Positions 15,733 to 31,418 of a stretch of 64,000 bases of DNA are shown here, piece after piece (position 1 is the first letter of the stretch; each line of letters begins with the position of its first letter). The notes under the pieces were generated by a model. The model made no database searches, was not told the origin of the DNA, and saw only the letters and a program-made list of their open reading frames with translations. The stretch lies in the NCBI RefSeq assembly GCF_029961185.1, contig NZ_JASBQQ010000013.1, positions 16,915 to 80,914 of the forward strand. Direction: 5' to 3'. This DNA comes from Albidovulum aestuarii. GTDB lineage: Bacteria; Pseudomonadota; Alphaproteobacteria; Rhodobacterales; Rhodobacteraceae. A program made the translations under genes and the position numbers.

Positions 15733-16619
15733 CACACCGGGGCTTTCTGTGCGCGGTCGATGCCAAGCGCCTTGGCCAGCGCGTCGGCTGTCAGATTGAT
15801 GCCGATGATCAGCGAGGAGAGCCCGATTACCGGTGCCAGCACACCCCAGGGCGCGAAGGACATGAAGCCACGCGCATCGGCGATCATCAGCCCCCAGTCC
15901 GGTGTCGGTGGCGAGACGCCGAAGCCGAGGAACGACAGCGATGAGAAGGCGAGCAGCATCCAAGACCAGCGCATCGCGCCCTCGACGAGAAGCGCGTCGC
16001 GAACATTGGGCAGAAGCTCGCGCTGGATGATCGTCATGCGCCCGTGGCCCCGCGCCCGGGCGGCCTGAATAAAGTCGCGGGCGACCACATCATGGGTCGC
16101 CGCGCGGGCGATACGGATCACGGGAATGCCGTAGAAGAAGGCGAGCGTCGGGATCAGCACCTCGATCCCGGTGCCGAACGTGACGATCAGCACCAGCATC
16201 TTGAGAATCCACGGCAGCGACAGGAAGGCATCGACGACCCGCATCAGCACGTCGTCGAGCCGCCCGCCGACGAGCCCGAAAAAGATGCCAACGAACCCGC
16301 CCCAAAGCACGGCAATGGGCGTCGCGATGCCGGTGACAAGGATCGCCTCGCGACCGCCGAGAAGCGTGCGGCTGAACGTGTCACGGCCCAGATGGTCGGT
16401 GCCGAACCAATGGGCGCCGGACGGCGCCTGCATCATCAGGTTCGCATCCACCGCCTTGTAATCATAGGGCGCGAGCCACGGCCCGAAGATCGCGAGGAAC
16501 AGGTGGAACGTCACCAGCGCGAGGCCGATCGCGCCCGAGGGCCGCGAAGTGATATCGGCGATCACGCCAAGGAAACGTGACGCGACGGAGGGACGGGCAT
16601 TGGTGGATGCAACGGCCAT
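15732..16619 (-). CDS. Peptide ABC transporter permease (DppC type)
   Basis: The 295-aa inner-membrane protein has about six hydrophobic segments. It carries the OppC/DppC N-terminal element (HWFGTDHLGRDTFSR) and the cytoplasmic EAA loop (AARARGHGRMTIIQRELLP) that contacts the ATPase. It is the third gene of the operon: its start overlaps the upstream permease stop (TGATG) and its stop overlaps the ATPase start. It works with the DppB-type partner and the binding protein to import peptides or similar solutes. Confidence 0.92.
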   Translation of the reverse strand: MAVASTNARPSVASRFLGVIADITSRPSGAIGLALVTFHLFLAIFGPWLAPYDYKAVDANLMMQAPSGAHWFGTDHLGRDTFSRTLLGGREAILVTGIATPIAVLWGGFVGIFFGLVGGRLDDVLMRVVDAFLSLPWILKMLVLIVTFGTGIEVLIPTLAFFYGIPVIRIARAATHDVVARDFIQAARARGHGRMTIIQRELLPNVRDALLVEGAMRWSWMLLAFSSLSFLGFGVSPPTPDWGLMIADARGFMSFAPWGVLAPVIGLSSLIIGINLTADALAKALGIDRAQKAPV

Positions 16620-17578
16620 CAGCCCTTCCTCATGTGCAATGTCCGCAGCCGGGGATTGGCGATCATGGTCAGAAGGTCGGCGGCGAGGTTCACGCCGACA
16701 TAGACCGAGGCGATGATCAGGGCGATCGCCTGCGTCACCGGCAGGTCACGGTCAGAGATGGAGTCGATCATCATCCTGCCCAGACCCGGATAGTTGAACA
16801 CAGTCTCGATCACGACGACACCGCCCAGAAGCCAGGCGATGGTCAGCGCCACGACGTTGATCGCGGGCAAAAGCGCATTGGGCAGGACATGCCGGAAGAC
16901 GATGCGCCAGTACGGCACGCCCTTCAGTGTCGCCATCTGTGCGTAATCCGATGCCATCGCTTCGATCACCGAGGACCGCACCGTGCGCAGGATATGCGCG
17001 GTCATGACGAAGGTCAGGACCATCATCGGCAGGAAAATTTCCGGAAAGAATTCCGATATCGGGGCGTTGGCCGAGGTCAGGACAATGCCAGGTATCCAGC
17101 CAAGCCAGACCGAGAAGATCAGGATGAGGAGCGTGGCTGAAACAAATTCCGGGATCGTCATCGCACCGATCGCGATCGTGGAGATCGTCAGGTCGACCAT
17201 CCGGTCGCGCCAGAGCGCGGCGACCACACCGAGAAAGAGCGCGAGCGGGATGCCTGCGAGCATGGCGCAGGAGGCGAGAAGCAGAGTGTTGCGAAGGCGA
17301 TAGCCGACCAGTTCGGTGATCTGTTTCTGCCCATTGGCGGACACGCCGAGATCGCCGGTTACGGCACCGGCGGCCCATTCAAGATAGCGCTCGGTCGCGG
17401 GCCGGTTCAGTCCCAGTTCCTGTCGGCAGTTTTCCAGAAGCTGCCCCTGCGCCTCGCGTTCAAGGAAGGCCGTGCAGGCATCGCCCGGCAGGATTTCGAC
17501 CCCGGCGAAGATGATGAGCGACACGAGAAAGACAGTGATCGCCCCCAGCGCCAGCCGCCGGATGAGCATTCTGAGCAT
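16619..17578 (-). CDS. Peptide ABC transporter permease (DppB type)
   Basis: The 319-aa inner-membrane protein is typical of DppB/OppB. It has an N-terminal membrane segment (LALGAITVFLVSLIIF), a long periplasmic loop, then five further segments and the EAA loop (YAQMATLKGVPYWRIVFRHVLP). I start at 17578, where GGAGAT precedes the ATG; the frame is open 14 codons further but has no site. It sits 69 bp behind the binding-protein gene and overlaps the next permease by one base. Confidence 0.92.
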   Translation of the reverse strand: MLRMLIRRLALGAITVFLVSLIIFAGVEILPGDACTAFLEREAQGQLLENCRQELGLNRPATERYLEWAAGAVTGDLGVSANGQKQITELVGYRLRNTLLLASCAMLAGIPLALFLGVVAALWRDRMVDLTISTIAIGAMTIPEFVSATLLILIFSVWLGWIPGIVLTSANAPISEFFPEIFLPMMVLTFVMTAHILRTVRSSVIEAMASDYAQMATLKGVPYWRIVFRHVLPNALLPAINVVALTIAWLLGGVVVIETVFNYPGLGRMMIDSISDRDLPVTQAIALIIASVYVGVNLAADLLTMIANPRLRTLHMRKG

Positions 17579-17647
17579 CGGGATATCTCCGCATGACAAG
17601 GCCGGAGCGCGGTTCGACACGCCCCGGCCATTGAAGCTGTCAGGCCG

Positions 17648-19132: not shown

Positions 19133-19381
19133 TCGGTCCTCCTCCCTGTTTTCGACCAGCCTTTCCGGCCAGCCACCGGACGCGCCGGTTTGGACGAATG
19201 CTCCCCGCCGCGCACCCAAGGTGACAAGCGACAAAAATCCGGATCATGGATAAAGAAAATGTCATGTGAAACGGATTGAAAGAGTATCAGCGGACAGCGT
19301 CGTTCCGGCAAATAGCATTCCTTCACCGAAGCATTTGCAAAAGCTATGGTCCGGGGCGAAACCGGCAATGTATGAAACGGC

Positions 19382-20071
19382 ATGCAGACGGGTCAGATCA
19401 AAGCAGTGCTGTCCGGCGGGGGCGGCGTCACGCACGGGACCGACCCGGCGCTGGAGGCGTTCCTTGTTTCCCTGCTCGGCGACAGGCCCTGCATCGGCTA
19501 TCTGGGAACCGCGAATGGGGACAACCCTGAAAGGCTCGATCGCGTGTACCGCCGCTTTGACAAGTTGGGCGCGGAGGTCAGGCACCTTCCGTTACGGGCT
19601 ACGGCGGATGAGGCCGGGCAATGGGCGCGCGGTCTCGACGCAATCTATGTCGGTGGCGGTCAAACCGAACGGATGCTGCGAACCTGGCGCGAGACCGGGA
19701 TCGACCGGGTTCTCAGCGATGCAGCCAAGCGTGGTATCGTCATGAGCGGTGTCAGCGCGGGTGCGGTTTGTTGGTTCGACTACGCATTTTGGGATGGGGC
19801 GGGAACGGGGTTCCGACCGCTTGAAGGCCTGGGTGTCATTGCTGGCAGTTGCTGCCCGCACTTCACGACCGAGCCGGAACGCGCGGCCGCCTATCGGGCG
19901 CATGTCGCGGATGGTCGAATCCCGGCGGGCTATGCGATCGGGGATGGTGCCGCGCTGGTCCTGTCGGGCGTGAACGTCGCCAAAGCCTGCATTGCCCGGC
20001 CGGGTTCAGGTGTCTGGAAAGCCGAGCGCGTGGCAGGCGATGCCCGGTTGACGCCGCTATCGTCAGCCTGA
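19382..20071 (+). CDS. Peptidase S51 / PepE-like (type 1 glutamine amidotransferase-like fold)
   Basis: This 229-aa protein has the S51 nucleophile elbow GVSAGA with Ser125, and the preceding strand YVGGGQTERML. A conserved His follows in CCPHF. S51 enzymes (aspartyl dipeptidase, cyanophycinase) cleave Asp-containing dipeptides in the cytosol. The gene is divergent from the peptide ABC importer across 249 bp, so import followed by hydrolysis is a reasonable inference. No clear Shine-Dalgarno precedes the ATG. The 3' end overlaps the convergent LysR gene by 9 nt. Confidence 0.82.
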   Translation: MQTGQIKAVLSGGGGVTHGTDPALEAFLVSLLGDRPCIGYLGTANGDNPERLDRVYRRFDKLGAEVRHLPLRATADEAGQWARGLDAIYVGGGQTERMLRTWRETGIDRVLSDAAKRGIVMSGVSAGAVCWFDYAFWDGAGTGFRPLEGLGVIAGSCCPHFTTEPERAAAYRAHVADGRIPAGYAIGDGAALVLSGVNVAKACIARPGSGVWKAERVAGDARLTPLSSA

Positions 20072-20962
20072 CTGCATCGCGGCCGCCTCTGCCACGATCC
20101 AGTCGCAGACAGCCCGGATTTCAGGCGTCTGTCGCGCGTTGGGGCGGGTCAGAAGGTGATAGGCCCGCTCAGGATGCAGATCTGTTTCAAATGGCCGGGC
20201 CAGTCGCCCCGCATCGATATCCGATTGCATGAAGGGAAAAATCCCAAGTGCAACGCCCTGACCTTCGAGTGCGGCCTGCGCCACGACATTACTGTCGGTG
20301 ACAATCGTTTCTTCGAGGAACTTCAGGCCCGGAACACCGGCCAGCTTCAGCCATACCTGCCACTCTCCACGGTCCTGCTGGTGAATGACCGGATAGCGGG
20401 CGAGATCGGCGGGGTCATTAAGCCCACCGAACCGTTCGATGAGCGTCGGCGCGGCAATCGGCGCATAGGTGATACGGAAGAGGGATCGCGCCTCAACTCC
20501 AGGCCAGTCGCCCACACCCCAGTCTATTGCAACCTGCGAGGGCATGCTTTCGATTCCGGTAATACGGGGGGCGTGCTGAAGAACGAGTTCGATCTTTGGG
20601 TTCTGCGCCCTGAACCTTCCCAGCCTCGGGATCAGCCAGCGTGCACCAAAGATAGGACCGACCGCTAGCGCGACCGACTTTGTCGGAGTCTGGATATGCG
20701 CATCGATCTCGTCCCGGATTTCGGAAAAGGCACGTGCAAGCACGCCCGCCAGCGAACGGCCGGCATCGGTCAGGACGACGGCGCGTGTTTTTCGCACGAA
20801 AAGCTGCACACCCCAGTCGCGTTCAAGCTGGCGGATCTGGTTGGACACGGTCGTGGCGCTGACGCAAAGCTCATCGGCTGCGTCTTTGAAACTCAATCGC
20901 CGTGCCGCCGCCTCGAAAGTGCGCAATGCAGTCAGCGGCAGGCGGCGGGTGGGAATGGCCAC
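20063..20962 (-). CDS. LysR-family transcriptional regulator (GcvA-like)
   Basis: This 299-aa LTTR of the GcvA/AmpR-like branch begins with PTRRLPLTALRTFEAAARRLSF, with an HTH through about residue 65 (DAADELCVSATTVSNQIRQL). GTG at 20962 is chosen because GGAGG lies 7 nt upstream; an upstream in-frame ATG at 21001 has no site. It is divergent from the MttB-family gene across about 150 bp and so is the likely regulator of the catabolic set 21110-25594. Its 3' end overlaps the S51 peptidase gene. Confidence 0.88.
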   Translation of the reverse strand: MAIPTRRLPLTALRTFEAAARRLSFKDAADELCVSATTVSNQIRQLERDWGVQLFVRKTRAVVLTDAGRSLAGVLARAFSEIRDEIDAHIQTPTKSVALAVGPIFGARWLIPRLGRFRAQNPKIELVLQHAPRITGIESMPSQVAIDWGVGDWPGVEARSLFRITYAPIAAPTLIERFGGLNDPADLARYPVIHQQDRGEWQVWLKLAGVPGLKFLEETIVTDSNVVAQAALEGQGVALGIFPFMQSDIDAGRLARPFETDLHPERAYHLLTRPNARQTPEIRAVCDWIVAEAAAMQSG

Positions 20963-21109
20963 GTCAATCCTCCGTAGATGAAGCAAGATTATTTTATCCA
21001 TGCGGGTTTGAATAGTCACTTGTCGCGATCCCGGACCGCAGGAAATGCTGGATGCAAATGATGCGCGTTCGGGGTCCGGGTTTTGCAGAACGATATTGCC
21101 GATAGCGAA

Positions 21110-22630
21110 ATGAGGGCCGCGCGCCGCGCACGGCGAGGGCGCGACAGCGCACCGCGCGTGCGGGCATCGACCGAGGTTGACGGGGGCAGATACAAGCCGC
21201 TGTCGAACGCAGATATCGAACGGATCCATCTTGCCACGCTCGACATTCTCGCCAATGTCGGTATGTCGGAAGCCCCTGATATCGTGTCAGAAACCGTCGT
21301 CGCAGCGGGCGGCGCCATTGCGGCGGACGGGCGGCTTGTTTTCCCGCCCGCCCTGGTCACAGCAGCACTTGATGATCTCAACCGGCCCCTGACACTGCCC
21401 GCCCGCAATACTGCCGACGACCTGTGCCTGTCAGGCCGTCGGGTCTATGTCGGCTCGGGTGGCGCGGCTCCGTTGATTGTCGATCTGGAGACCGATACCT
21501 ACCGGCCATCCACTCTCCGAGATCTCTTTGACGCCGCGCGCATGGTGGATGCTCTGGAAAACGTCCATTTCTTCTCACGCTCGGTCGTGGCGCGCGACGT
21601 GGAGGGGCTTGAGGCGCTCGACATCAACACGGCTTTTGCCTCGCTCGCCGGGACGTCGAAACATGTGATGGTCGCGGCGCACGATCCCGCGCATGTCCGT
21701 GCCATCGGGCGCATGTGCCACCTGATTGCCGGATCGGAGGAAGCGTTTCGGGCACGCCCCTTCCTGTCGCTGAACATCAACCATGTCGTACCGCCGCTGC
21801 GCTACTCTGAAGAGGCCTGCGCCGTCCTGGCGGAGGCTGTGCGGCAGGGTATCCCGGCCCATGTCAACACTTTCGGCCAGATGGGCGCGTCCAGCCCAGT
21901 GACGATCGCCGGTTGCGTCGCCCAGACCGTTGCTGAAACACTGGCGGGTGTGATCTTTGCCTGGGCGCTCGACCCATCCGCCAAGGTCGTGTTCGGGGTG
22001 CGACCCATGGTGACCGACCTGCGCACCGGCGGCATGGCTGGGGGTGCGGGGGAACAGGCTTTGCTGACCGCGGCGGTTGTGCAGATGGTTCAGCACTATG
22101 GCCTGCCGAATTCGACCATCGCTGGCGCGACCGACAGCAAGATATCCGACGCGCAGAGCGGCTATGAGAAATGCCTCTCGGTGAACCTCGCGGCGCAGAC
22201 CGGCGCCAACATGATCACCCAGGCCTGCGGCATGCAGGCCGGGCTGATGGGATGTTCGTTCGAGAGCTATGTCATCGACAATGAGATGCTCGGGGCGATC
22301 CTTCGCTCTATGGCGCCGATCGAGGTCAGCGCAGCCACCCTGTCGCCCGAGATGATCGGCGAGGTCGTGCGCGGAGAGGGGCATTTCCTCGGCCATTCCG
22401 ACACGCTTGCGCGGATGCAGACCGACTTTCTGTACCCCCGGCTCGCCGACCGGCGCGACCCTGAGGAATGGCAGGCGGCGGGTGCTCCGGAGATCCGGCA
22501 ACCCGCGAAGGCGCGGGCCCGGGAAATTCTCGACACACACTTCCCCTCGCCGATACCGGCCGATATCGAGGCTGCGATCCGGGCAGAGTTCGATATTCGC
22601 CTTCCCGAAAGCACCATGAGGCCGAAATGA
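21110..22630 (+). CDS. Trimethylamine methyltransferase (MttB) family protein, non-pyrrolysine
   Basis: The 506-aa protein begins with a basic Arg-rich tail (MRAARRARRGRDSAPR) and then GGRYKPLSNADIERIH, the family's usual N-terminus. The TIM-barrel core includes ATDSKISDAQSGYEK and QACGMQAGLMGCSFESYVID. No internal TAG interrupts the frame, so it lacks pyrrolysine, like the MtgB-type glycine-betaine methyltransferases. Such enzymes move a methyl group from a quaternary or tertiary amine to a corrinoid protein; none is encoded nearby. A TTG start at 21083 is possible. Its stop overlaps the next gene (ATGA). Confidence 0.85.
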   Translation: MRAARRARRGRDSAPRVRASTEVDGGRYKPLSNADIERIHLATLDILANVGMSEAPDIVSETVVAAGGAIAADGRLVFPPALVTAALDDLNRPLTLPARNTADDLCLSGRRVYVGSGGAAPLIVDLETDTYRPSTLRDLFDAARMVDALENVHFFSRSVVARDVEGLEALDINTAFASLAGTSKHVMVAAHDPAHVRAIGRMCHLIAGSEEAFRARPFLSLNINHVVPPLRYSEEACAVLAEAVRQGIPAHVNTFGQMGASSPVTIAGCVAQTVAETLAGVIFAWALDPSAKVVFGVRPMVTDLRTGGMAGGAGEQALLTAAVVQMVQHYGLPNSTIAGATDSKISDAQSGYEKCLSVNLAAQTGANMITQACGMQAGLMGCSFESYVIDNEMLGAILRSMAPIEVSAATLSPEMIGEVVRGEGHFLGHSDTLARMQTDFLYPRLADRRDPEEWQAAGAPEIRQPAKARAREILDTHFPSPIPADIEAAIRAEFDIRLPESTMRPK

Positions 22631-23559
22631 AGATCTCCATCATCGGCGCAGGCGCTATGGGGTCGGTCTATGCCGCGCTTTTCGCCGAGGCGGAGCACGA
22701 CGTTGTTGTCGTAGACCCCTGGCGGGACCACGTGGACGCGATCAACCGCGATGGATTGCGGCTGTCGGGGGCAAGTGGCGACCGCATGATCCACGGAATT
22801 CGCGCTACGGGCGATGCGGCAGAGACCGAAGGGTCGGGATTGTTTGTCCTCGCCACAAAGGCGAGCGCCGTGGGCGAAGCCGCCCGGACGATCAAACCCC
22901 ACGCAGGCGGCGCCGTAATCCTGACAATCCAGAATGGATTGGGTGCCGCCGAACGGATCGGCGCGCATATGGACACCACCAACGTGTTGCTCGGCGTCGC
23001 CGATGGGTTCGGGGCGTCGATGAAGGGGCCGGGTCACGCCCATCATAATGCGATGAAACTGATCCGCGTCGGCGAGATCGGTGGCGGGCTCACGCAGCGG
23101 TTGGAACATTTGGCTGGGATCTGGCGCGGCGCGGGGTTCAACGTGAAAGCGTATCCCGACATCCGCCAGCTGATCTGGGAAAAGTTCCTGTGCAATGTGA
23201 CGTTCTCGGCCCCCTGCGCGGTCTTCGACCGGACGCTGGGCGAGTTGATGTCGGAGCCCGACCTTTGGGCTATCGCGACCGGTTGCACGAGAGAGGCGCA
23301 TGAAGCGGGGATTGCCGAGGGCGTTGCATTCACCTTCGACGACCCTGTTGCCTATGTCACGGCGTTTGGTCAATCCATGCCCGAGGCGCGCCCCTCGCTG
23401 GCGCTTGACCACCGGGCGGGCAAACTCTCAGAAATCGACGCCATCAATGGGATGGTTCCTGTGGTGGCGGCCCGTCACGGGTTGACAGCCCCCTATAATC
23501 AGACGCTTTCCGCCGTCATCCGGGCGCGCGAAGCTGAATTCGGCAAGGTCGGGCCGTGA
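22627..23559 (+). CDS. Ketopantoate reductase-family (PanE/ApbA-like) oxidoreductase
   Basis: The 310-aa protein has the Rossmann motif IIGAGAMGSVYAALFAEA at the N-terminus and KASAVGEAARTI plus ILTIQNGLGAAERI, as in PanE. The C-terminal helical domain holds the catalytic-type Lys in WEKFLCNV. Coordinates overlap both neighbours by 4 nt (ATGA upstream, GTGA downstream), so it belongs to a tightly coupled operon. In that setting a 2-oxo or 2-hydroxy acid other than ketopantoate is the likelier substrate; that is inference from context. Confidence 0.85.
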   Translation: MKISIIGAGAMGSVYAALFAEAEHDVVVVDPWRDHVDAINRDGLRLSGASGDRMIHGIRATGDAAETEGSGLFVLATKASAVGEAARTIKPHAGGAVILTIQNGLGAAERIGAHMDTTNVLLGVADGFGASMKGPGHAHHNAMKLIRVGEIGGGLTQRLEHLAGIWRGAGFNVKAYPDIRQLIWEKFLCNVTFSAPCAVFDRTLGELMSEPDLWAIATGCTREAHEAGIAEGVAFTFDDPVAYVTAFGQSMPEARPSLALDHRAGKLSEIDAINGMVPVVAARHGLTAPYNQTLSAVIRAREAEFGKVGP

Positions 23560-24692
23560 CCTTGGAAATGCCGAAGGCCGCGGTAACACCAACGAGATCT
23601 AAACTGGAGTTCCGTGGTGCGCATCTCAGCCTCCCGGCAGATGACGCCACAGCGCGGCTTGAGGGCATTTTCCGGGCGCTCGGCTCCACCGAGCATATCG
23701 CAGAAGAGGTGGCGGCGCATCTTGTCGATGCGAATCTTTGTGGCGTCGAAAGTCATGGTGTCGTGCGCGCGCTGCAATATGCGGGACAGTTTCGTTCGGG
23801 CTACATGCGAGCAGGTGTCGAGCCCATTGTTAAGGAGAGTGGAGCAGGCAGGCGCGAGGTCGACGGACAGGGCGGAATCGGCATCCCGGCGATGCAGATG
23901 GCCTTTGACGAAGGGTGCAGGCTGGCGCGTGCAACGGGCGTTGCCGCGCTCGCCGTCAGGAATGTGGGTCACACGGGTCGGCACGGCGCCTTTGCCGAAG
24001 CGGCGGCAAATGAGGGGATGCTGACCTTCCTGATGGGCGGCGGCAACCGTCAGACCTGGCGGCAGGTCGCACCGCATGGTGGCCGCAAGGCGCTGTTGCC
24101 GACAAATCCGTGGTGCATCGGTATTCCGGGCGGGGCGCGGGGACCCGTCGTGCTCGATTTTGCGACGTCCAAAATCGCCGGTGGCTGGATATACGCGGCA
24201 CACTCTGCGGGCGCTCTCTTGCCTGAGGGATGTGTGATCGACCGTGACGGCAACCCGACCCGCGATCCGGAGGATTATTTCGCTGGCGGCGCGATCCTGC
24301 CTTCTGGGGAACATAAGGGCTACGGCCTTGCTCTCATGGCGGAACTGATCGCCGAAGCAATGCTGGGCCCGGTGACCGCTGAGGCGAACTGGCTGCTGAT
24401 CGTGATTGATGCGACGCGCTTTCGCGACACGCTCGGGATGGCCCGGACGGCAGAAGAAATCCTTGCCGAACTGCGTCACTGCCCGCCCGCGCCGGGGTTT
24501 TCCTCAGTGGATATTCCTGGCGAAAGGGAGCGTGCCCATCACGCGACGTCGAAAGGACGGATATCGGTGCCCGAAGCCACCTGGGCACAGATTGGCGATC
24601 TCGCCCGATCTCTCGGTCTTGCTTGGGAAGACCGAAATTCGACTGAGGCATATCCGCCCATGCCGGACGCGCCAGACATTACGAAGGAATAA
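23556..24692 (+). CDS. Ldh-family (malate/L-lactate/ureidoglycolate-type) NAD(P) dehydrogenase
   Basis: The 378-aa protein belongs to the MDH2/Ldh_2 family: ESHGVVRALQY near residue 65, NVGHTGRHGAFAEAAA with a conserved His, TNPWCIGIPGG, VLDFATSKIAGG and LPSGEHKGYGLALMAELI. Enzymes of this family oxidise 2-hydroxyacids such as malate, L-lactate, sulfolactate or ureidoglycolate with NAD(P). It starts at GTG 23556, overlapping the previous stop (GTGA). The next gene follows after 2 bp. The exact substrate cannot be told. Confidence 0.86.
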   Translation: MTLEMPKAAVTPTRSKLEFRGAHLSLPADDATARLEGIFRALGSTEHIAEEVAAHLVDANLCGVESHGVVRALQYAGQFRSGYMRAGVEPIVKESGAGRREVDGQGGIGIPAMQMAFDEGCRLARATGVAALAVRNVGHTGRHGAFAEAAANEGMLTFLMGGGNRQTWRQVAPHGGRKALLPTNPWCIGIPGGARGPVVLDFATSKIAGGWIYAAHSAGALLPEGCVIDRDGNPTRDPEDYFAGGAILPSGEHKGYGLALMAELIAEAMLGPVTAEANWLLIVIDATRFRDTLGMARTAEEILAELRHCPPAPGFSSVDIPGERERAHHATSKGRISVPEATWAQIGDLARSLGLAWEDRNSTEAYPPMPDAPDITKE

Positions 24693-24694
24693 CG

Positions 24695-25594
24695 ATGAAG
24701 ATTGCGAGCTTCCTTTTCGAAGATGAACCCCAGTACGGGCTCGTCGATGGGGACAGATTGCATCCGGTATCCGGCAATTTCCGGCAGCGATTTCCGTCCT
24801 TGCGCGCGGTTCTTGCTGCCGGACGGCTGGACGAACTTTCCGCCGACGCGAGACGACAGAAGGCGCTTTCCTTCGAGGCGGTCACCTTTCTGCCACCGCT
24901 GCCGGATGCCGCGCGCGTGATCTGCGTCGGCATCAATTATCCCAAACGCTATCCGCTTGATGCGAATGTGGGTCGGCCGGAAAACATTATCCTGTTCGCG
25001 AAGCTGCCGGGAACCCTTCTTGGACACGGCGACACGCTGGACATCCCGCAAGGCGAGGCCGCAGAGACGTTTGACTATGAAGGCGAAATCGCCGTCGTTA
25101 TCGGCCGACAGGGGCGTCACATTTCAGCCGATAAGGCGCACGAATACATTGCTGGCTTCACTGCCTTCAACGATGGTTCGGTGCGCGGGTGGCAGAAGCA
25201 TTCTGTCCATGCCGGAAAGAACTTTGCCGGTTCCGGCGCCTGCGGCCCGTGGATTGTGACAGCCGATGAGATTGACGTGCCCGAGGCGATGACGGTGACA
25301 ACGCGCCTCAATGGTCAGGTTGTCCAACACGCTCCGGCAACCGAGATGTTCTTCTCGATCCCCGAGGTCATCGCCTACGTCTCGCATCTGACGCCAATCG
25401 AACCCGGAGATATCATCGCGATGGGATCGCCGGACGGGTCCGGCGGCAGCCGGGTTCCTCCGCGATTCCTAAGGGATGGTGACGTATTGGAGATTGAAGT
25501 TTCGGGCGTCGGCACGCTCGTGAACAGGATCGGCACGGGACAGGAGAAAGTTGCTGCCGGATGGCAGACCGACATTGCCGGAAAGGGTTGCTGA
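24695..25594 (+). CDS. Fumarylacetoacetate hydrolase (FAH)-family protein
   Basis: The 299-aa protein shows the FAH metal-site pattern: YEGEIAVVIGRQGRHIS gives the acidic ligands, followed by FTAFNDGSVRGWQKHS and GKNFAGSGACGPWIV. The C-terminal part has TPIEPGDIIAMGSPDGSGG. Family members cleave C-C bonds of acyl-pyruvates or act as hydratases or decarboxylases in catabolic pathways. AAGGAAT precedes the ATG at good spacing. It is last in the four-gene set begun by the MttB-family gene. Confidence 0.9.
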   Translation: MKIASFLFEDEPQYGLVDGDRLHPVSGNFRQRFPSLRAVLAAGRLDELSADARRQKALSFEAVTFLPPLPDAARVICVGINYPKRYPLDANVGRPENIILFAKLPGTLLGHGDTLDIPQGEAAETFDYEGEIAVVIGRQGRHISADKAHEYIAGFTAFNDGSVRGWQKHSVHAGKNFAGSGACGPWIVTADEIDVPEAMTVTTRLNGQVVQHAPATEMFFSIPEVIAYVSHLTPIEPGDIIAMGSPDGSGGSRVPPRFLRDGDVLEIEVSGVGTLVNRIGTGQEKVAAGWQTDIAGKGC

Positions 25595-25672
25595 CCCTCA
25601 CTCCCGATATATAGCCTTCTCAAATACATTCGACCGATGCATTCTGCTTTCGCAATTGAAACGAGGATCAGG

Positions 25673-26596
25673 ATGAACATCCGTCAACTGGAAGCGTTCC
25701 GCGCGACCATGCAGTGCGGCTCAATCACCGCCGCGGCAGAGGCCCTGCACATTTCGCAGCCGAGCGTCAGCCGACTGATTGCCGATCTCGAACACTCCGT
25801 CGGTTTTGCGCTGTTTCTGAGAACCGGCCGGGGTCTGACACCAACAGACGAGGCGCATCGTTTCCATCAATCGGTCGAAGGCATGTTCATCGGCGTGTCT
25901 CGTCTGCGGGAAACGGCGGAAGCTATCCGCACTACGACCGGAGGTATGATCTCCATCGGCGTGATCCAGTCCATTGCCACGCTGGAGCTTCCCAAGGCCG
26001 TGCGTGCCATCCATGAGCGATATGACGATGCCCGCTTCATGATCCAGAGTCGCAATACTCCGGCGATCCTCGACGCGCTTCAGGCACATCAGCTCGACCT
26101 AGGTGTCGTCGGCCGACAGCCGCCCTATGTCGGGGTCGAAGTGATCGCCGAAACGGCGGCGCCCTATGTATGCCTTTTGCCCGAAGACCACCCGCTGCGC
26201 GATGCGCAAGGACCACTTGATCTTGAAGATCTGACTGAGACCGAGACATTCATTACCACGGGCGACGCTTACCCGGACGAGATGATGGGGATCGACCGGG
26301 CGCTGTTCCGCCGCCTGAAGGCGCGGTCGCGGATTTCAGCCGCGAACCTGCCCGTCGCTGCGGCTCTGGTCCGCGAAACCGGCGCGATCGCCATCGCGGA
26401 TCCGTTCTCTGCCGAACAGGCCGTGCGCATGGGGGGCGTCGTGTTCAGACCGATCCGGCAGGCGTTGAGTTATCATATTGCCATCGTGTGTCGGGCACGC
26501 GACCGGTTACCGCGACCTGCGCGTGAGTTCGTCGAGGTCCTGAGCAAACAGATTCAGGAGCGCAGCGAAGCAGTCGCGCGATACGCGGAACGCTGA
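25673..26596 (+). CDS. LysR-family transcriptional regulator (CysB/CynR-like)
   Basis: The 307-aa LTTR begins MNIRQLEAFRATMQCGSITA, with an HTH to about residue 60 (EALHISQPSVSRLIADLE). The effector domain resembles the group with FMIQSRNTPAILDALQAHQLDLGVV. AGGA lies 5 nt before the ATG at 25673; twelve further upstream codons are open. It sits between the two catabolic gene sets, facing the second one, and may regulate one or both. Confidence 0.88.
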   Translation: MNIRQLEAFRATMQCGSITAAAEALHISQPSVSRLIADLEHSVGFALFLRTGRGLTPTDEAHRFHQSVEGMFIGVSRLRETAEAIRTTTGGMISIGVIQSIATLELPKAVRAIHERYDDARFMIQSRNTPAILDALQAHQLDLGVVGRQPPYVGVEVIAETAAPYVCLLPEDHPLRDAQGPLDLEDLTETETFITTGDAYPDEMMGIDRALFRRLKARSRISAANLPVAAALVRETGAIAIADPFSAEQAVRMGGVVFRPIRQALSYHIAIVCRARDRLPRPAREFVEVLSKQIQERSEAVARYAER

Positions 26597-26718
26597 AGCG
26601 GCGAAGGAACCTCCATAGCTTTTTCGGATGATCGGTGCCGATTATTGCATTGGAGGCAATCCATGCGCGCATCTTAGACTTTGAAGCAGCGGATGCGGAT
26701 GGATGGTCCTTCGTTAAG

Positions 26719-27909
26719 ATGACAGGCTTCTCTGGCAAGGCAAAGGGATCGCGCATTCACTGCGCCGCCGACGCCCGCCGACTTGCTCAGCTGAGACTGC
26801 CAAGGCTTGTGTTTGATTTTGTTGACGGCGCAACCGGGCGCGAAGTCGGCGCGCACAAGAATGCGACGGCCTTCGACCAGATCGAGCTGACGCCTAGGGT
26901 CATGGTGCCGACAGATGGCCGCAATCTCTCGACGGAGATTTTCGGACGGACCTTCAACTGCCCATTCGGAATAGCCCCGATGGGCATGTGCAACCTCATC
27001 TGGCCCGGAGCGGATGGGATGCTTGCCCGCCTGGCAAAGAGCCGCGACATCCCGCTCGGCGTGTCGTTCGCCTCTTCCACCACGCTTGAAGAAATGCGGG
27101 ATTGGGCAGGCCCCAATGCCTGGTTCCAGCTCTATGTGCAAGGTGAGGCGGATGCCGCCCTTGCCATGGCCGAACGCGCATCAAAAGCGGGCTACGAGGT
27201 GCTGGTCCTGACCGTCGATGTGCCGCAAGTGTCGCGCCGGGTCAGGGACCTGAACAACGGGTTCACTGTGCCTTTCCGGATCGGCGCGCGGCAGTTCCTC
27301 GATTTTGCGGCTCACCCTCGCTGGGCTCTGGCCACATTGCGGCACGGGTCGCCTGTGCCGCAGAATTTTCGGGGGAGCACAGGCTTTGATCGAACTGCAA
27401 GCCGCGCCGGAGCTGATTGGACCTTCCTGAAGCGTCTTCGTGACGCATGGCCGGGCACGCTTGTAGTCAAGGGCGTGATGTCGGCCGAAGATGCTCTGCG
27501 TATTCGCAACGCAGGGGCAGATGCTGTATGGGTGTCCAACCACGGCGGTCGGCAACTGGATGCGGCACCCCCGGCGATCTCGGTACTGCCCCACATCCGC
27601 AGAGCGGTCGGACCTGACTATCCGCTTATCTTCGACAGCGGAATCCGTCAGGGCGAGGATGTCGTCAGGGCGCTGGCGCTAGGCGCAAATTTTGTAATGC
27701 TCGGCCGACCCGTCCTCTATGCAATCGGCGCAGAGGGCGAAGCTGGCCTGACCGCTTATCTCGACGCGCTCCAAGACGAGCTAGAAATCGCGATGGCCCA
27801 GCTTGGCCTTTCGGATGTCAACCAGATCAACCGGGCAGTGATTGCCGATACTGATGAAACACCGTCTGATCGGGCACCAACAGGCCTAAAGCTCGCGGCG
27901 CGCACATAA
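26719..27909 (+). CDS. FMN-dependent alpha-hydroxyacid dehydrogenase (LldD/mandelate dehydrogenase family)
   Basis: The 396-aa TIM-barrel flavoprotein shows FDFVDGATGRE at the N-terminus, the FMN and substrate elements IAPMGMCNLIWPGADG, LTVDVPQVSRRVRD and LVVKGVMSAEDAL, and the catalytic loop SNHGGRQLD, where His is the base. It oxidises an (S)-2-hydroxyacid to the 2-oxoacid, giving electrons to quinone or oxygen. The ATG at 26719 fits the family N-terminus; a GTG at 26635 would add 28 residues. A ThDP enzyme gene follows 18 bp later, an arrangement resembling the mandelate pathway (dehydrogenase then decarboxylase). Confidence 0.9.
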   Translation: MTGFSGKAKGSRIHCAADARRLAQLRLPRLVFDFVDGATGREVGAHKNATAFDQIELTPRVMVPTDGRNLSTEIFGRTFNCPFGIAPMGMCNLIWPGADGMLARLAKSRDIPLGVSFASSTTLEEMRDWAGPNAWFQLYVQGEADAALAMAERASKAGYEVLVLTVDVPQVSRRVRDLNNGFTVPFRIGARQFLDFAAHPRWALATLRHGSPVPQNFRGSTGFDRTASRAGADWTFLKRLRDAWPGTLVVKGVMSAEDALRIRNAGADAVWVSNHGGRQLDAAPPAISVLPHIRRAVGPDYPLIFDSGIRQGEDVVRALALGANFVMLGRPVLYAIGAEGEAGLTAYLDALQDELEIAMAQLGLSDVNQINRAVIADTDETPSDRAPTGLKLAART

Positions 27910-27927
27910 CAAGAAGAGGCAGCTTTG

Positions 27928-29658
27928 ATGGCGACAGAGACGAAGCTGAGGGGGGGCGCGCTATTGGCGCGGGCGCTCAAGGAGAAGGGGGCGGAGCATG
28001 TCTTCACACTCGCCGGAGGGTTCTGCAACCCGGCGCTGGAAGGCTTCATGGAATGCCAGATGCCGGTCATCAACTGCCCGCACGAACAGGTCGCCGGACA
28101 TCTTGCCGATGGACACACACGCATCACGCGGAAACCCGCGATCTGTCTGGTCGGGCCGGAAGGCTTCGCCAATGCCGTGCCCGCAATGCTCGAGGCGATG
28201 GGTGAACGCAGCCCGGTGATCTTCGTCACGGGGTCTTCGACGCTGAAACGGCAGGGTGCGGGCGGGTTCAAGGAAATCGACGACGTCGCGATCGCGGCAC
28301 CCCTCTGCAAATACTCGGCCCGGATCACCGATGGCACCCGGATTGGTGAGTTCGTGGACCGCGCCTGGACGGCGGCAACCACGGGCTATCCCGGCCCGGT
28401 GCACCTGTCTCTGCCGGTCGACATAATGTTCTCGTCCTACCCGGAGGATGCAGGGCGCGAGGAACGCCCGTTCCGGCGCGACGCGCGTCCGTTGCCCCGG
28501 GCGTGGCCCGACCCGACCGGATTGGCGCGGGTTCTGGACTTTGTAGGAAGGGCCGAGCGGCCGGTGATCATCGGCGGCCACGGTGTCTGGTGGTCGCGCG
28601 GCGAGGCGAAACTTGCCGAGGTCGCGGCAAAACTCCGCATTCCGGTCTTCAACGTGCCTTATCACACAAAACTGTTGGGGGAAGACTGCGAGGCGATGAT
28701 GGGTCTCGCTGATTTCCACCAGTACCACCCCTCCAAGCCAGCCATTCACGAGGCCGATCTGGTTCTTATGATCGGCGGACGGCTCGACAATCAGATGAAC
28801 TTCGGCAATCCCCCCTTCTTTCCGGCTGGCCAGACGCTTATCTGCGTGAACGGAAGCCATGAGGAGCTTGAATACAACCGCGCCGCCGATGACGTCCTTT
28901 TGTCTGATCCCGGCGCCTTTCTGGAGGCACTGGCGGGCGTCGGGCGGTCATGGCCGGACTGGTTCGACCTGCAAAAGAAACGGCGCTCGGACTGGGTCTC
29001 TGAATGGTCGAACCACATCGCCGGTGAGACCCGCCAGGACGAGGCCGAAGGCAACAAGATGCACCCGCTTCAGATGTCACTCGACGTTCAGGCGGCGATG
29101 GCGGATGGCGACTGGCTGGTCTTCGATGGTGGCAATACGCATTTCTGGTCCGAGATCGCCGTCAACATAGCGGGTGCAAGGGGGCGACGGTTGGGCGGCA
29201 TCCTGCATCCGGGCAATTATTCGCTGCTCGGCGTCGGCGTCAGCTTTGCGCTGTCGGCCAAGGCCACGCATCCCGACCGGAATGTGGTGCTGATCACCGG
29301 GGACGGCGCATTCCTGTCCGGCGGCCTGTCGATCGAGGCGGCATTTCAGGAACAGTTGCCGATCACGGTGGTGGTCGACAACAACGGCGGGCTCGACTGC
29401 ATCAGCCAGCAGCAGGAACGGCTCTTCGCCTCGGGCAAGCATTTCGCCACGGATTTCCGCGACATTCCGTTTCATACGATGTTCGAGGGACTCGGTGGCC
29501 ATGGTGAACTTGTGACCCGACGCTCGGAACTGGCCCCGGCACTGGCGCGGGCGATGGCGTCGGGCAAGACCGCCTGCGTCAACGTGAAATGCAGAGGTGT
29601 GATCAGTCCGATCGTGGCGGCCACGTCGGACAAGCGGGACAAGGCATCCATCGAATGA
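27928..29658 (+). CDS. Thiamine diphosphate-dependent enzyme (acetolactate synthase/decarboxylase-like)
   Basis: The 576-aa protein has the three-domain ThDP layout. The N-terminal domain has the catalytic Glu in CPHEQVAGHLADGH (near residue 51). A middle domain begins RPVIIGGHGVWWS. The C-terminal ThDP-binding motif GDGAFLSGGLSIEAA...VVDNN is at about 457-486. Likely reactions are decarboxylation or carboligation of a 2-oxoacid, or 2-hydroxyacyl-CoA cleavage. It follows the 2-hydroxyacid dehydrogenase, whose 2-oxo product would suit it. Its stop overlaps the next start (ATGA). Confidence 0.88.
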   Translation: MATETKLRGGALLARALKEKGAEHVFTLAGGFCNPALEGFMECQMPVINCPHEQVAGHLADGHTRITRKPAICLVGPEGFANAVPAMLEAMGERSPVIFVTGSSTLKRQGAGGFKEIDDVAIAAPLCKYSARITDGTRIGEFVDRAWTAATTGYPGPVHLSLPVDIMFSSYPEDAGREERPFRRDARPLPRAWPDPTGLARVLDFVGRAERPVIIGGHGVWWSRGEAKLAEVAAKLRIPVFNVPYHTKLLGEDCEAMMGLADFHQYHPSKPAIHEADLVLMIGGRLDNQMNFGNPPFFPAGQTLICVNGSHEELEYNRAADDVLLSDPGAFLEALAGVGRSWPDWFDLQKKRRSDWVSEWSNHIAGETRQDEAEGNKMHPLQMSLDVQAAMADGDWLVFDGGNTHFWSEIAVNIAGARGRRLGGILHPGNYSLLGVGVSFALSAKATHPDRNVVLITGDGAFLSGGLSIEAAFQEQLPITVVVDNNGGLDCISQQQERLFASGKHFATDFRDIPFHTMFEGLGGHGELVTRRSELAPALARAMASGKTACVNVKCRGVISPIVAATSDKRDKASIE

Positions 29659-29975
29659 CAGCCACGATTTCCACTCATGTTCTGAACGGGGCGGATGGCA
29701 CCCATTCAAGCGGCGTCGCCGTTCGGCTGATCAATCTGACGACGGGCGCAACCCTCTTCGAAGAGAAGACCGATAGCGGCGGGCGACTGTCGCACCAGGT
29801 CGATTTGACTGGCCTCAACTCAATGGACCGCTACGAGCTGAGTTTCGCGACGCGCGCGGGAGCCATGGAGGAGATCGCACTGCGCTTCGTCATGCCAGAT
29901 CCCGAGGGCCGCTACCACATGCCAGTGATCCTGTCGCCCAATGCCGCTTCCTTCTGGTGGTCTGTTCCGGAGTGA
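29655..29975 (+). CDS. Transthyretin-like / hydroxyisourate hydrolase-family protein
   Basis: The 106-aa protein starts TATISTHVLNGADGTHSSGVAVRL, close to the HIU-hydrolase N-terminus with its active-site His (STHVL). An Arg in DSGGRL and a His in GRYHMPVILSP match the other catalytic positions. However, the C-terminal tetrapeptide YRGS that marks true HIU hydrolases is absent; the protein ends SFWWSVPE. It may therefore hydrolyse another cyclic amide or act otherwise. It overlaps the ThDP gene (ATGA) and is followed after 4 bp by the DmdA-like gene. Confidence 0.8.
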   Translation: MTATISTHVLNGADGTHSSGVAVRLINLTTGATLFEEKTDSGGRLSHQVDLTGLNSMDRYELSFATRAGAMEEIALRFVMPDPEGRYHMPVILSPNAASFWWSVPE

Positions 29976-29979
29976 TCCC

Positions 29980-31089
29980 ATGACCGACGGTCTGAACTTC
30001 TCCCGCCGCCTGCGCCGCACACCCTATACCGGACGTGCCGAAGCCGCCGGGGTGCGCGGCTTTTCCGTCGTCAATCACATGCTGCTGCCCAAGGCCTACG
30101 CCCGGTCGGTCGAGGAGGATTACTGGCATCTGCGCGAGCATGTGCAGATCTGGGACGTTGCCTGCCAGAGGCAGGTTCAGATCGAAGGGCCGGACGCCAC
30201 CCGGCTTGTGCAATGGATGACCCCGCGCGACATCGGGCGGGCGAAGGTCGGCGATTGCCTTTACGTACCGATTACCGACGAGTCTTCGGGACTGATCAAC
30301 GACCCGGTTCTCCTGAAGCTCGCGGAGGACCGGTTCTGGCTCTCCATCGCAGACAGCGACCTCCTGCTCTACGCCAAGGGACTGGCGATCGGGCGCGGCA
30401 TGAACGTCCGGATCGAGGAACCGGATGTATCGCCGCTCGCCGTTCAGGGGCCGAAGGCGGAGGCAGTGATGGCGGACCTCTTCGGCGAACACATCCGCGA
30501 GATCGGTTTCTTCAAGTTCGCCTGGGTCGAGTTCAAAGGCACGCGCCAACTGATCGCGCGGTCCGGCTATTCAAGGCAGGGCGGGTTCGAGATCTACCTG
30601 CAGGGCGCCCACTTTGGCCCCGCACTCTGGGACGCCATCTGGGAGGCGGGACAACTATACGACATCGCGCCAGGCTGCCCGAACCTTATCGAGCGGATCG
30701 AGGGTGGGCTGCTCTCTTACGGCAACGAGATGACACGCGAGAACAATCCGCTCGAGATCGGATTGAGCAAGTACTGCACACTTGACGAATCCATCGAGTA
30801 TATAGGCCGGGATGCGCTTCAGCGCATTGCCGCCCAAGGCATTACCCGCAAAATTCGGGGTGTTGTTTTCGATGGTGGTCGCTGTCCGACCTGCGCGGAA
30901 CCGTGGCCGTTGATGTCGGACGGTCGCCAGATTGGTCAAATCACGTCGGCAGTCTGGTCACCGAGGCGGGATGCGAACGTTTCACTGGCGATGGTAAATC
31001 ACGGATTCTGGGACCATGGCCAGATGATTACGGTTCAGGTCAGCGATGGTTCACACCGAAATGGTTGGATCGCGAACCTTCCGATGTAA
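29980..31089 (+). CDS. DmdA-like tetrahydrofolate methyltransferase (DMSP demethylase / GcvT family)
   Basis: The 369-aa protein of the aminomethyltransferase (GcvT) fold closely follows DMSP demethylase DmdA: SRRLRRTPYTGRAEAAGVRG, NHMLLP, HVQIWDVACQRQVQI, DVSPLAVQGPKAE, RSGYSRQGGFEIYL, ERIEGGLLSYGNEMTREN. DmdA transfers a methyl group from dimethylsulfoniopropionate to tetrahydrofolate. dmdB, dmdC and dmdD are not adjacent, and the context (ThDP, 2-hydroxyacid enzymes) differs, so a related methylated substrate is possible. GGAG lies 7 nt before the ATG. It is the last gene of this set. Confidence 0.82.
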   Translation: MTDGLNFSRRLRRTPYTGRAEAAGVRGFSVVNHMLLPKAYARSVEEDYWHLREHVQIWDVACQRQVQIEGPDATRLVQWMTPRDIGRAKVGDCLYVPITDESSGLINDPVLLKLAEDRFWLSIADSDLLLYAKGLAIGRGMNVRIEEPDVSPLAVQGPKAEAVMADLFGEHIREIGFFKFAWVEFKGTRQLIARSGYSRQGGFEIYLQGAHFGPALWDAIWEAGQLYDIAPGCPNLIERIEGGLLSYGNEMTRENNPLEIGLSKYCTLDESIEYIGRDALQRIAAQGITRKIRGVVFDGGRCPTCAEPWPLMSDGRQIGQITSAVWSPRRDANVSLAMVNHGFWDHGQMITVQVSDGSHRNGWIANLPM

Positions 31090-31342: not shown

Positions 31343-31418
31343 TGGTGAGCCCGACAGGATTCGAACCTGTGACCCACTGATTAAAAGTCAGTTGCTCTAC
31401 CAACTGAGCTACGGGCCC
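31343..31418 (-). tRNA. tRNA-Lys (anticodon TTT)
   Basis: A full cloverleaf of 76 nt can be drawn on the minus strand. The acceptor GGGCCCG pairs with CGGGCTC (one G-T pair), the D arm is GCTC/GAGC, the anticodon stem ACTGA/TCAGT encloses CTTTTAA with anticodon TTT, and the T arm is ACAGG/CCTGT with TTCGAAT. The discriminator is A and CCA is encoded. It lies between the DmdA-like gene and dapF. Confidence 0.97.

What the first reader, a model, noticed from the sequence alone, without database searches (positions are those of the whole stretch)
20063..31089. Undescribed catabolic gene set combining MttB-like, DmdA-like, 2-hydroxyacid dehydrogenase and ThDP enzymes
Two LysR-linked, tightly overlapping gene sets contain two methyltransferase families with different acceptors (corrinoid for MttB, tetrahydrofolate for DmdA), three oxidoreductases for 2-oxo or 2-hydroxy acids, an FAH hydrolase, a ThDP enzyme and a transthyretin-like protein. 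No corrinoid protein or Dmd partner is nearby. I know no named pathway with this content. A methylated onium or amine compound with a 2-hydroxyacid moiety, demethylated and then oxidised and decarboxylated, is a working hypothesis.
Basis: partly seen in the sequence, partly recalled or inferred. Interest (0 to 1): 0.72.

Follow-up and report, generated by a model that had tools for sequence, protein, structure and literature searches.

The report
Marine sulfonium hydroxy-acid breakdown genes
A gene set that recurs in many, mostly marine, bacteria is predicted to break down a sulfur-methylated hydroxy acid, likely a relative of the algal compound DMSP, and would be a so far undescribed route to the gas methanethiol.

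Summary
The genes are there and more than chance. They form two separable modules. (1) Core: lysR2, FMN 2-hydroxyacid dehydrogenase, ThDP enzyme, transthyretin-like protein, DmdA-like methyltransferase. In the best 80 loci found by the ThDP protein (75-85% identity), 74 have the transthyretin-like gene, 64 the DmdA-like gene, 57 the FMN gene. (2) mttB-panE-(ldh2)-fah, near S51 and an SBP5 ABC transporter, joins in 16 of 80 and also occurs in a genome without the core.

The DmdA-like protein is not the ordinary DMSP demethylase. It forms its own clade (support 0.99), keeps the folate residues, and has Val where every other DmdA that I read has Tyr32. The sulfur clue is methanethiol oxidase: near the core in 11 of 80 loci, and in 35 of 37 core-bearing genomes tested against 37 of 115 relatives without the core.

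Best reading (inferred): a dimethylsulfonium 2-hydroxy acid, best candidate DMSHB, is demethylated to MTHB, oxidised to MTOB, decarboxylated to methional, and ends as methanethiol. Substrate, transthyretin-like step and module 2 remain unproven. My paper searches found no description.

The parts
13717..15963 (-). ABC transporter ATPase, oligopeptide type (two ABC domains)
   Evidence: Pfam ABC_tran 192.5 bits, oligo_HPY; family recurs beside the core
16622..17620 (-). ABC transporter permease
   Evidence: Pfam BPD_transp_1 117.3 bits
17648..19234 (-). ABC transporter binding protein, SBP_bac_5
   Evidence: Pfam 284.9 bits; 20 of 80 core loci at >=65% identity
19382..20071 (+). peptidase S51 family protein
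   Evidence: Pfam 105.0 bits; 16 of 80 core loci
20063..21001 (-). lysR1, GcvA-like LysR regulator, divergent from mttB
   Evidence: Pfam HTH_1 and LysR_substrate; nearest NCBIfam model GcvA, below its cut-off (255.7 of 288); start from the HTH position
21083..22630 (+). mttB-like methyltransferase (start TTG 21083 or ATG 21110)
   Evidence: Pfam MTTB 379.8 bits; below the cut-off of the pyrrolysine TMA enzyme (349.7 of 525)
22627..23559 (+). panE/apbA-like 2-oxoacid reductase
   Evidence: TIGR00745 213.2 bits, cut-off 141.35
23556..24692 (+). Ldh_2 family 2-hydroxyacid dehydrogenase
   Evidence: Pfam 284.8 bits
24695..25594 (+). fumarylacetoacetate-hydrolase family protein
   Evidence: Pfam 197.8 bits
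25673..26596 (+). lysR2, LysR regulator of the core
   Evidence: Pfam; 45 of 80 core loci
26635..27909 (+). FMN-dependent 2-hydroxyacid dehydrogenase (core)
   Evidence: Pfam FMN_dh 409.1 bits; PDB: two long L-lactate oxidase entries first (275.2 and 261.0 bits, four stretches each), then 6bfg (S)-mandelate dehydrogenase 258.9, glycolate oxidases from 192.1 down; 57 of 80
27925..29658 (+). ThDP enzyme, predicted 2-oxoacid decarboxylase (core; TTG 27925 or ATG 27928)
   Evidence: three TPP domains; no cut-off reached among the 25 listed of 51 NCBIfam matches, best 270.8 of 587; nearest PDB 2-hydroxyacyl-CoA lyase/oxalyl-CoA decarboxylase 209.8 bits
29655..29975 (+). transthyretin-like (HIU-hydrolase fold) protein (core)
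   Evidence: Pfam 44.0 bits on the longer ORF; AlphaFold2 pLDDT 91.6; Foldseek to HIU hydrolases, E about 1e-6; 74 of 80
29980..31089 (+). DmdA-like THF-dependent methyltransferase of the Val32 clade (core)
   Evidence: NF009133 563.3 bits; tree and diagnostic residues

Best explanation
The five-gene core (lysR2, FMN dehydrogenase, ThDP enzyme, transthyretin-like protein, DmdA-like methyltransferase) is a conserved cassette of mostly marine bacteria that likely breaks down a methylated-sulfur 2-hydroxy acid, with 4-dimethylsulfonio-2-hydroxybutyrate (DMSHB) as the best candidate. Proposed order, all steps inferred: the substrate enters by the neighbouring SBP5 ABC or TRAP transporter. The DmdA-like enzyme would move one S-methyl group to tetrahydrofolate (DMSHB to MTHB, 4-methylthio-2-hydroxybutyrate). 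The FMN enzyme would oxidise the 2-hydroxy acid to the 2-oxo acid (MTOB). The ThDP enzyme, with the transthyretin-like protein as partner, would decarboxylate it to methional. General enzymes would take methional to MMPA and methanethiol, and methanethiol oxidase would finish the job. Shown here: the gene content, its conservation, the separate DmdA-like clade with folate residues kept and an altered neighbouring motif, and the association with methanethiol oxidase. The mttB-panE-ldh2-fah module is a separable second module that probably feeds on a related methylated compound through a shared corrinoid protein.
For: Conserved cassette: the best 80 of 524 ThDP relatives, 75-85% identity; by tblastn 74 have TTR, 64 the DmdA-like gene, 57 FMN, 45 lysR2. 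Co-occurrence: in a class sample of 385 genomes the ThDP gene is in 6; of 18 DmdA-family hits I read 15, and the 5 of Val type are all beside ThDP and TTR, the 10 of Tyr type are not. In a family sample of 120, ThDP is in 5, all 5 with an adjacent DmdA-family hit and all 5 with a second one elsewhere, so the cassette copy does not replace the ordinary enzyme. Clade: 79 of 127 sequences, monophyletic, support 0.997, Val 79/79 against Tyr 48/48; 83 of 141, support 0.994; after removing repeats Val in 70 of 70 distinct clade sequences and Tyr in 57 of 57 others. Folate-side residues kept: E204 and Y206 in 83/83 and 57/57. Sulfur: methanethiol oxidase within the fetched stretch in 11 of 80 loci; the 8 full-length copies have the three cysteine motifs of the cluster 1 enzymes, two of which were shown to consume methanethiol (PMC10936201, section 9 and passages). 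This genome's own copy, on another contig, has the same three (GWNACS, HTIHC, GGDCS). Genome level: 35 of 37 core-bearing genomes tested against 37 of 115 without the core (p = 5e-12). Core-bearing genomes with no ordinary DmdA hit still have it in 13 of 14, against 11 of 71 core-less genomes without DmdA. Three of those 14 have no DmdA hit at all at the threshold used (L040, L045, L047), as expected if they start from the thioether MTHB.
Against: No enzyme assay, and the substrate is inferred. The cassette has no aldehyde dehydrogenase and no DmdB. The acyl-CoA dehydrogenase and enoyl-CoA hydratase that recur nearby (13 and 10 of 80) are, for the one copy of each compared, nearest to 2pg0 and long-chain acyl-CoA dehydrogenases and to 3myb and ECHDC3; no row named DmdC or DmdD is among the best 60. 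I recall, without a call, that algal DMSHB is the D form, whereas FMN 2-hydroxyacid enzymes act on L forms. The methanethiol oxidase of this genome is not near the cassette. Two core-bearing genomes have none (L080, L083). Only 33 of the genomes behind the 80 loci were given to that call, chosen by me mainly for long contigs; they span several families while the comparison set is one family, so kinship is not controlled. Methanethiol oxidase also goes with ordinary dmdA. 16 of 80 loci lack the DmdA-like gene (two of them, L038 and L042, end soon after TTR), and one of 6 class genomes with ThDP (G516) has none. Two Val-type genes, L153 (contig end) and L157, have no ThDP within 1.5 kb. A tryptophan that PMC7487153 calls key for DMSP is Tyr in 82 of 83 clade sequences, but also in 49 of 57 others (numbering matched by me), so it does not tell the two apart. 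The transthyretin-like step has no chemical role in this scheme.
Confidence: 0.4

Rival explanations
1. The FMN and ThDP (with TTR) pair is an oxidative decarboxylation system that turns DMSHB itself into DMSP (by way of 4-dimethylsulfonio-2-oxobutyrate and the aldehyde), that is, the missing bacterial DMSHB decarboxylase, and the DmdA-like enzyme acts on one of these sulfonium intermediates.
For: The enzyme for this step is unidentified in Labrenzia aggregata and DsyGD is called the only known one (PMC11306096, passages). A Labrenzia sp. (L010) carries two ThDP-TTR copies, one beside FMN and one beside a GlcD-type oxidase, and its genome has a single DmdA hit, of Tyr type.
Against: L010 is not L. 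aggregata, and that strain was not searched. In 64 of 80 loci a demethylase gene is in the locus, and methanethiol oxidase is linked, which favours breakdown.
Confidence: 0.15
2. Nitrogen version: the substrate is a quaternary or tertiary amine with a 2-hydroxy acid part; MttB takes the first methyl, the DmdA-like enzyme a later one.
For: MttB-family proteins act on betaines in marine bacteria (PMC12478193). All 16 loci with mttB also have the DmdA-like gene. GcvT-family relatives include amine demethylases such as TMAO demethylase (127.8 bits).
Against: 64 of 80 core loci show no mttB. The DmdA-like protein is nearest SAR11 DmdA in the PDB (372.8 bits) and keeps the RSG-aromatic-S-x-QGG motif in nearly all copies (aromatic 83 of 83, Q 81 of 83). 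Methanethiol oxidase enrichment is unexplained.
Confidence: 0.15
3. A second, ordinary DMSP demethylase that happens to lie in an operon for oxidation of a common 2-hydroxy acid such as lactate or glycolate.
For: The protein passes NCBI's DMSP demethylase cut-off (563.3 of 410), public sources name several relatives DMSP demethylase, and the two top PDB rows for the FMN enzyme are L-lactate oxidases.
Against: Separate clade with fixed substitutions. All 5 family genomes with the cassette already carry another DmdA. ThDP-TTR and DmdA-like stay together across alpha- and gammaproteobacterial loci.
Confidence: 0.15
4. Purine-like route: the transthyretin-like protein is a 5-hydroxyisourate hydrolase and the set degrades a methylated purine or hydantoin.
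For: Same fold as HIU hydrolases and the HIU-hydrolase part of allantoin synthase; H8, R44 and H88 invariant in 12 aligned copies; an Ldh_2 enzyme related to ureidoglycolate dehydrogenase, below its cut-off.
Against: 42.3 bits against a cut-off of 87.45; no purine gene among the recurrent neighbours that I identified; the motif DGTH and a W-x-S end replace the usual ones (the usual ones are recalled, not from a call).
Confidence: 0.04

Closest known systems
DMSP demethylation pathway (DmdA, then DmdB, DmdC, DmdD/AcuH, then methanethiol oxidase)
   Same: DmdA-family THF methyltransferase with folate residues kept; methanethiol oxidase associated
   Different: Own DmdA clade with Val for Tyr32; FMN, ThDP and TTR enzymes in the operon; no DmdB/C/D-type partner seen in the cassette
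DMSP synthesis by transamination (MTOB, MTHB, DMSHB, DMSP)
   Same: The proposed steps run partly the same intermediates backwards
   Different: Catabolic; by family the cassette enzymes differ from the methyltransferases known there (DsyB, DsyGD), which is recalled and read from PMC11306096 passages, not tested by search
Mandelate-type route (FMN 2-hydroxyacid dehydrogenase followed by ThDP 2-oxoacid decarboxylase)
   Same: Same two-enzyme logic (recalled); the FMN enzyme scores higher to mandelate dehydrogenase than to glycolate oxidase in PDB hits
   Different: Transthyretin-like and methyltransferase partners; sulfur context
MtgBCD glycine betaine demethylase of marine bacteria (PMC12478193)
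   Same: MttB-family module with a corrinoid partner encoded elsewhere
   Different: This MttB lies with panE, ldh2 and fah; substrate unknown

Membership tests
DMSP demethylase DmdA | NCBI model NF009133 over its cut-off | tested here: met
   563.3 bits, cut-off 410
DMSP demethylase DmdA | tetrahydrofolate-binding residues | tested here: met
   E204 and Y206 in 83 of 83 clade sequences; their role taken from PMC7487153 (alignment numbers 178 and 180, passages; the shift of 26 is my inference)
DMSP demethylase DmdA | falls inside the DmdA clades with their fixed residues | tested here: not met
   separate clade, Val for Tyr32 in 79 of 79 against Tyr in 48 of 48; 70 of 70 against 57 of 57 distinct sequences; I did not place the published clades A-E in the tree
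DMSP demethylase DmdA | makes MMPA from DMSP | not testable with these tools
   needs an assay
5-hydroxyisourate hydrolase | NCBI model TIGR02962 over its cut-off | tested here: not met
   42.3 bits, cut-off 87.45
5-hydroxyisourate hydrolase | transthyretin fold with catalytic His, Arg, His | tested here: met
   fold; H8, R44, H88 invariant in 12 copies; that these are the catalytic residues is recalled
MttB superfamily / MtgB | Pfam PF06253 over cut-off | tested here: met
   379.8 bits, cut-off 25
MttB superfamily / MtgB | pyrrolysine trimethylamine enzyme (TIGR02369) | tested here: not met
   349.7 bits, cut-off 525
MttB superfamily / MtgB | corrinoid partner in the genome | tested here: met
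   one B12-binding_2 match on another contig; that the two proteins work together is not shown
[quoted passage not shown]
   all three in the 8 full-length neighbour copies; the 4 fragments (from L047, L048, L069) show the motifs that their stretch covers, with GGNCT in one; motifs from PMC10936201
Acetolactate synthase, oxalyl-CoA decarboxylase and other named ThDP enzymes | a curated NCBIfam cut-off | tested here: not met
   best 270.8 of 587 among the 25 listed of 51 matches

The most novel reading that the evidence does not exclude
Marine bacteria carry a second sulfonium demethylation pathway, parallel to the DmdA pathway, that starts from DMSHB (or its thioether MTHB) instead of DMSP, uses a re-specialised DmdA clade, and yields methanethiol without passing through DMSP; its FMN-ThDP-transthyretin trio is also the long-missing bacterial DMSHB/MTOB oxidative decarboxylase.
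Probability: 0.25. Interest if true: 0.82.

Novelty: new variant of a known kind. Interest (0 to 1): 0.62.

Why it matters
If right, a share of the genes now counted as dmdA in marine data sets would not act on DMSP, and methanethiol would have a second source from DMSP precursors. [quoted passage not shown] The clade has a simple sequence mark (Val for Tyr32), so existing dmdA counts could be re-examined at once.

Tried and rejected
DmdC/DmdD link: the acyl-CoA dehydrogenase and enoyl-CoA hydratase near the cassette looked like DmdC and DmdD at first; PDB comparison of one copy of each put them with other acyl-CoA dehydrogenases and with 3myb/ECHDC3, so I dropped that identification.

Confounding by ordinary DMSP demethylation: methanethiol oxidase goes with dmdA in the family sample (26 of 44 core-less genomes with dmdA, 11 of 71 without). 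I therefore compared only genomes without an ordinary DmdA hit (13 of 14 against 11 of 71). The calls give no completeness for the 14, so an ordinary dmdA may have been missed, and hits under the threshold (E 1e-118) are not counted.

Counting traps: 14 of the 16 Val-type loci come from the same cassettes already found by the ThDP search, so their adjacency is no independent test; searches are. The Fisher test on the class sample treats 3 unread lower DmdA hits, and anything below the threshold, as not Val type. In the family sample I read 30 of 55 hits through the loci (L108-L137; 29 from core-less genomes), all Tyr type; the rest of the core-less ones were not read. G001 and G125 proved to be one genome and are counted once.

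Plasmid carriage: no match to ThDP (E 1e-100) or TTR (E 1e-8) in 72,556 plasmid records. Literature: no description of this gene set in searches (listings only, plus the passages cited), in a library of open-licence papers. The DmdA structure paper is not held, so I could not check whether Tyr32 lines the DMSP pocket. The SAR92 DmdA-like protein without activity (PMC10746254, section 8 and passages) is described there as GcvT-like, so it is unlikely to be this clade.
Full report
What is in the sequence. Two LysR genes go with two operons: mttB-panE-ldh2-fah (21083-25594) and FMN dehydrogenase-ThDP-transthyretin-like-dmdA-like (26635-31089), with 4-bp overlaps at mttB/panE, panE/ldh2 and ThDP/TTR. 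Upstream, on the other strand, lies an oligopeptide-type ABC transporter (binding protein 17648-19234), and between it and lysR1 an S51 peptidase gene. A tRNA-Lys gene (31343-31418, -) follows the last gene.

Is it a unit? One scan of 84,980 species' genomes with the ThDP protein gave 524 relatives, of which the best 80 loci, 75-85% identical, were kept. By their record titles they come from Rhodobacteraceae/Paracoccaceae, Rhizobiaceae, Kiloniella and other alphaproteobacteria, SAR116, and gammaproteobacterial Granulosicoccaceae, Oceanospirillaceae and others; that most of these live in the sea is my knowledge of the groups, not a result. By tblastn, 74 have the transthyretin-like gene, 64 the dmdA-like gene, 57 the FMN gene, 45 lysR2, 16 mttB, 13 panE, 8 fah, 6 ldh2, 16 S51 and 20 the SBP5 gene; many contigs are short, so these are lower bounds. 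The order varies (inversions, separate blocks), yet the partners stay together. The core seems to be fed in several ways: loci without dmdA-like carry a GlcD-type FAD oxidase and a TauD dioxygenase with a Tct transporter (L010, L031), two PhyH oxygenases (SAR116, L076 and L077), or a Mo oxidoreductase with domains as in DMSO/TMAO reductases (L014, L079) (Pfam was run on one member per family).

The mttB module is separable. An mttB orthologue (E <= 1e-140) is in 14 of 120 family genomes. Five are at 57% identity or more; two of them, G036 and G056, have no ThDP gene, and G036 shows S51, lysR1, mttB, panE and fah in a row. Within the 80 core loci, all 16 with mttB also have dmdA-like. So the two modules are frequent neighbours without being one obligatory unit. 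The lack of a corrinoid gene nearby is expected: in marine bacteria MttB-family proteins work with a separate MtgC and MtgD (PMC12478193, section 5 and passages), and this genome has one B12-binding_2 protein and ten MttB-family genes.

The DmdA-like protein. It is 46.0% identical to SAR11 DmdA and 48.9% to the other high-scoring DmdA of the same genome. In a tree of 127 sequences the cassette proteins form one clade (79 sequences, support 0.997). At SAR11 residue Tyr32, just before the conserved Asn-His, all 79 have Val and all 48 others Tyr; Tyr29 to Phe (74 of 79), Thr30 to Ser (76 of 79) and Asp250 to Glu (79 of 79) go with it. A larger tree (83 of 141) gives the same (0.994). Without repeats the counts are 70 of 70 Val and 57 of 57 Tyr. 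Folate-side residues are kept (roles from PMC7487153 passages, with numbering matched by me). The residue that the same paper calls key for DMSP (Trp) is Tyr in 82 and Phe in 1 of 83 clade sequences, and Tyr in 49 and Trp in 8 of 57 others, so it does not separate the two. I read the pattern as folate chemistry kept and methyl donor changed; that is inference, as I could not map Tyr32 onto the pocket.

Independent co-occurrence. In 385 genomes drawn from the class, ThDP is in 6. Of 18 DmdA-family hits, 15 were read: 5 Val type, all beside ThDP and TTR; 10 Tyr type, none. The sixth ThDP genome (G516) has no DmdA hit. In 120 genomes of the family, ThDP is in 5, each with an adjacent DmdA-family hit and a second one elsewhere. 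So the cassette is patchy and its parts travel together. Two Val-type genes in core-bearing genomes (L153 at a contig end, L157) have no ThDP within 1.5 kb.

The sulfur link. An SBP56-family gene lies in 11 of 80 loci (1.34 Mb in all, where about 0.4 would be expected from one or two copies per 4-Mb genome, my estimate). The 8 full-length copies carry the three cysteine motifs of cluster 1 methanethiol oxidases, two of which were shown to consume methanethiol (PMC10936201, section 9 and passages). The window's own genome has one SBP56 gene, far from the cassette (591 bits), with the same three motifs. At genome level 35 of 37 distinct core-bearing genomes have SBP56 (34 of 36 after merging G001 and G125, plus G000), against 37 of 115 core-less family genomes; p = 5e-12. 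One search was given 33 genomes behind the 80 loci, picked mainly for long contigs, and the 4 other core-bearing family genomes; the core-bearing genomes of the class sample were not tested. For the high-scoring type (600 bits or more) my hand count is 27 of 36 against 9 of 115. Ordinary DmdA does not explain it all: 13 of 14 against 11 of 71 among genomes without such a hit. Three core-bearing genomes (L040, L045, L047) have no DmdA hit at the threshold and still have the oxidase. Kinship is not controlled in these comparisons.

The other enzymes. For the FMN protein the two top PDB rows are long L-lactate oxidase entries with four matched stretches (275.2 and 261.0 bits); then come (S)-mandelate dehydrogenases (258.9, 223.3) and, lower, glycolate oxidases (192.1 and less). 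A 2-hydroxy acid larger than glycolate is thus plausible. The ThDP protein reaches no cut-off among the 25 NCBI families listed and is nearest to 2-hydroxyacyl-CoA lyases and oxalyl-CoA decarboxylases. The transthyretin-like protein has the HIU hydrolase fold with invariant His8, Arg44 and His88 in 12 copies and a conserved W-x-S end, but fails the HIU hydrolase model.

Mechanism. The simplest compound with a removable S-methyl, a 2-hydroxy acid and a methanethiol end is DMSHB, with MTHB as its demethylated form. [quoted passage not shown] The chain DMSHB, MTHB, MTOB, methional, MMPA, methanethiol uses each core enzyme once, except that the transthyretin-like protein has no assigned step. I put 0.4 on a methylated-sulfur 2-hydroxy acid with DMSHB/MTHB as best candidate. 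Against it stand the recalled D-configuration of algal DMSHB, the absence of an aldehyde dehydrogenase and of DmdB in the cassette, and the lack of any assay.

Novelty. Known enzyme families in an undescribed combination, with a separate DmdA clade: a new variant of a known kind. I found no account of it in seven paper searches of an open-licence library only.

Noticed in passing
G000:C23:305784-306851 (L102:9728-10909, -): A third DmdA-family protein (375 bits, under the cut-off) has nearby a 290-aa ORF that looked like a cyanophycinase (S51) and a 934-aa ORF that looked like a cyanophycin synthetase, both judged by eye only; the S51 family also sits beside the window's cassette.
   Followed up: no
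L010:3068-12087: A Labrenzia species carries two ThDP-TTR pairs in one locus, one beside a GlcD-type oxidase and TauD dioxygenase, the other beside lysR2 and the FMN enzyme.
   Followed up: partly
L076 and L077 (SAR116): ThDP-TTR follows two PhyH-family oxygenases and precedes a protein with NuoF-like domains, as in NAD-linked formate dehydrogenases (that likeness is recalled).
   Followed up: no
L011, L025, L031, L078, L084, L085, L088: The methanethiol oxidase gene forms a recurrent block with a 2Fe-2S ferredoxin and a CoA-binding protein, in some loci also with a rhodanese and a thiolase.
   Followed up: partly
window 31343-31418: A tRNA-Lys gene (TTT) lies right behind the cassette; whether the cassette is an island inserted there was not tested.
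   Followed up: no
G000 (whole genome): Ten MttB-family genes but a single B12-binding_2 corrinoid protein, as expected if many substrate modules share one MtgC.
   Followed up: partly
L014:15268-17577 and L079:5791-8127: A molybdenum oxidoreductase with domains as in DMSO/TMAO reductases next to the core hints that a sulfoxide may be another entry substrate.
   Followed up: no
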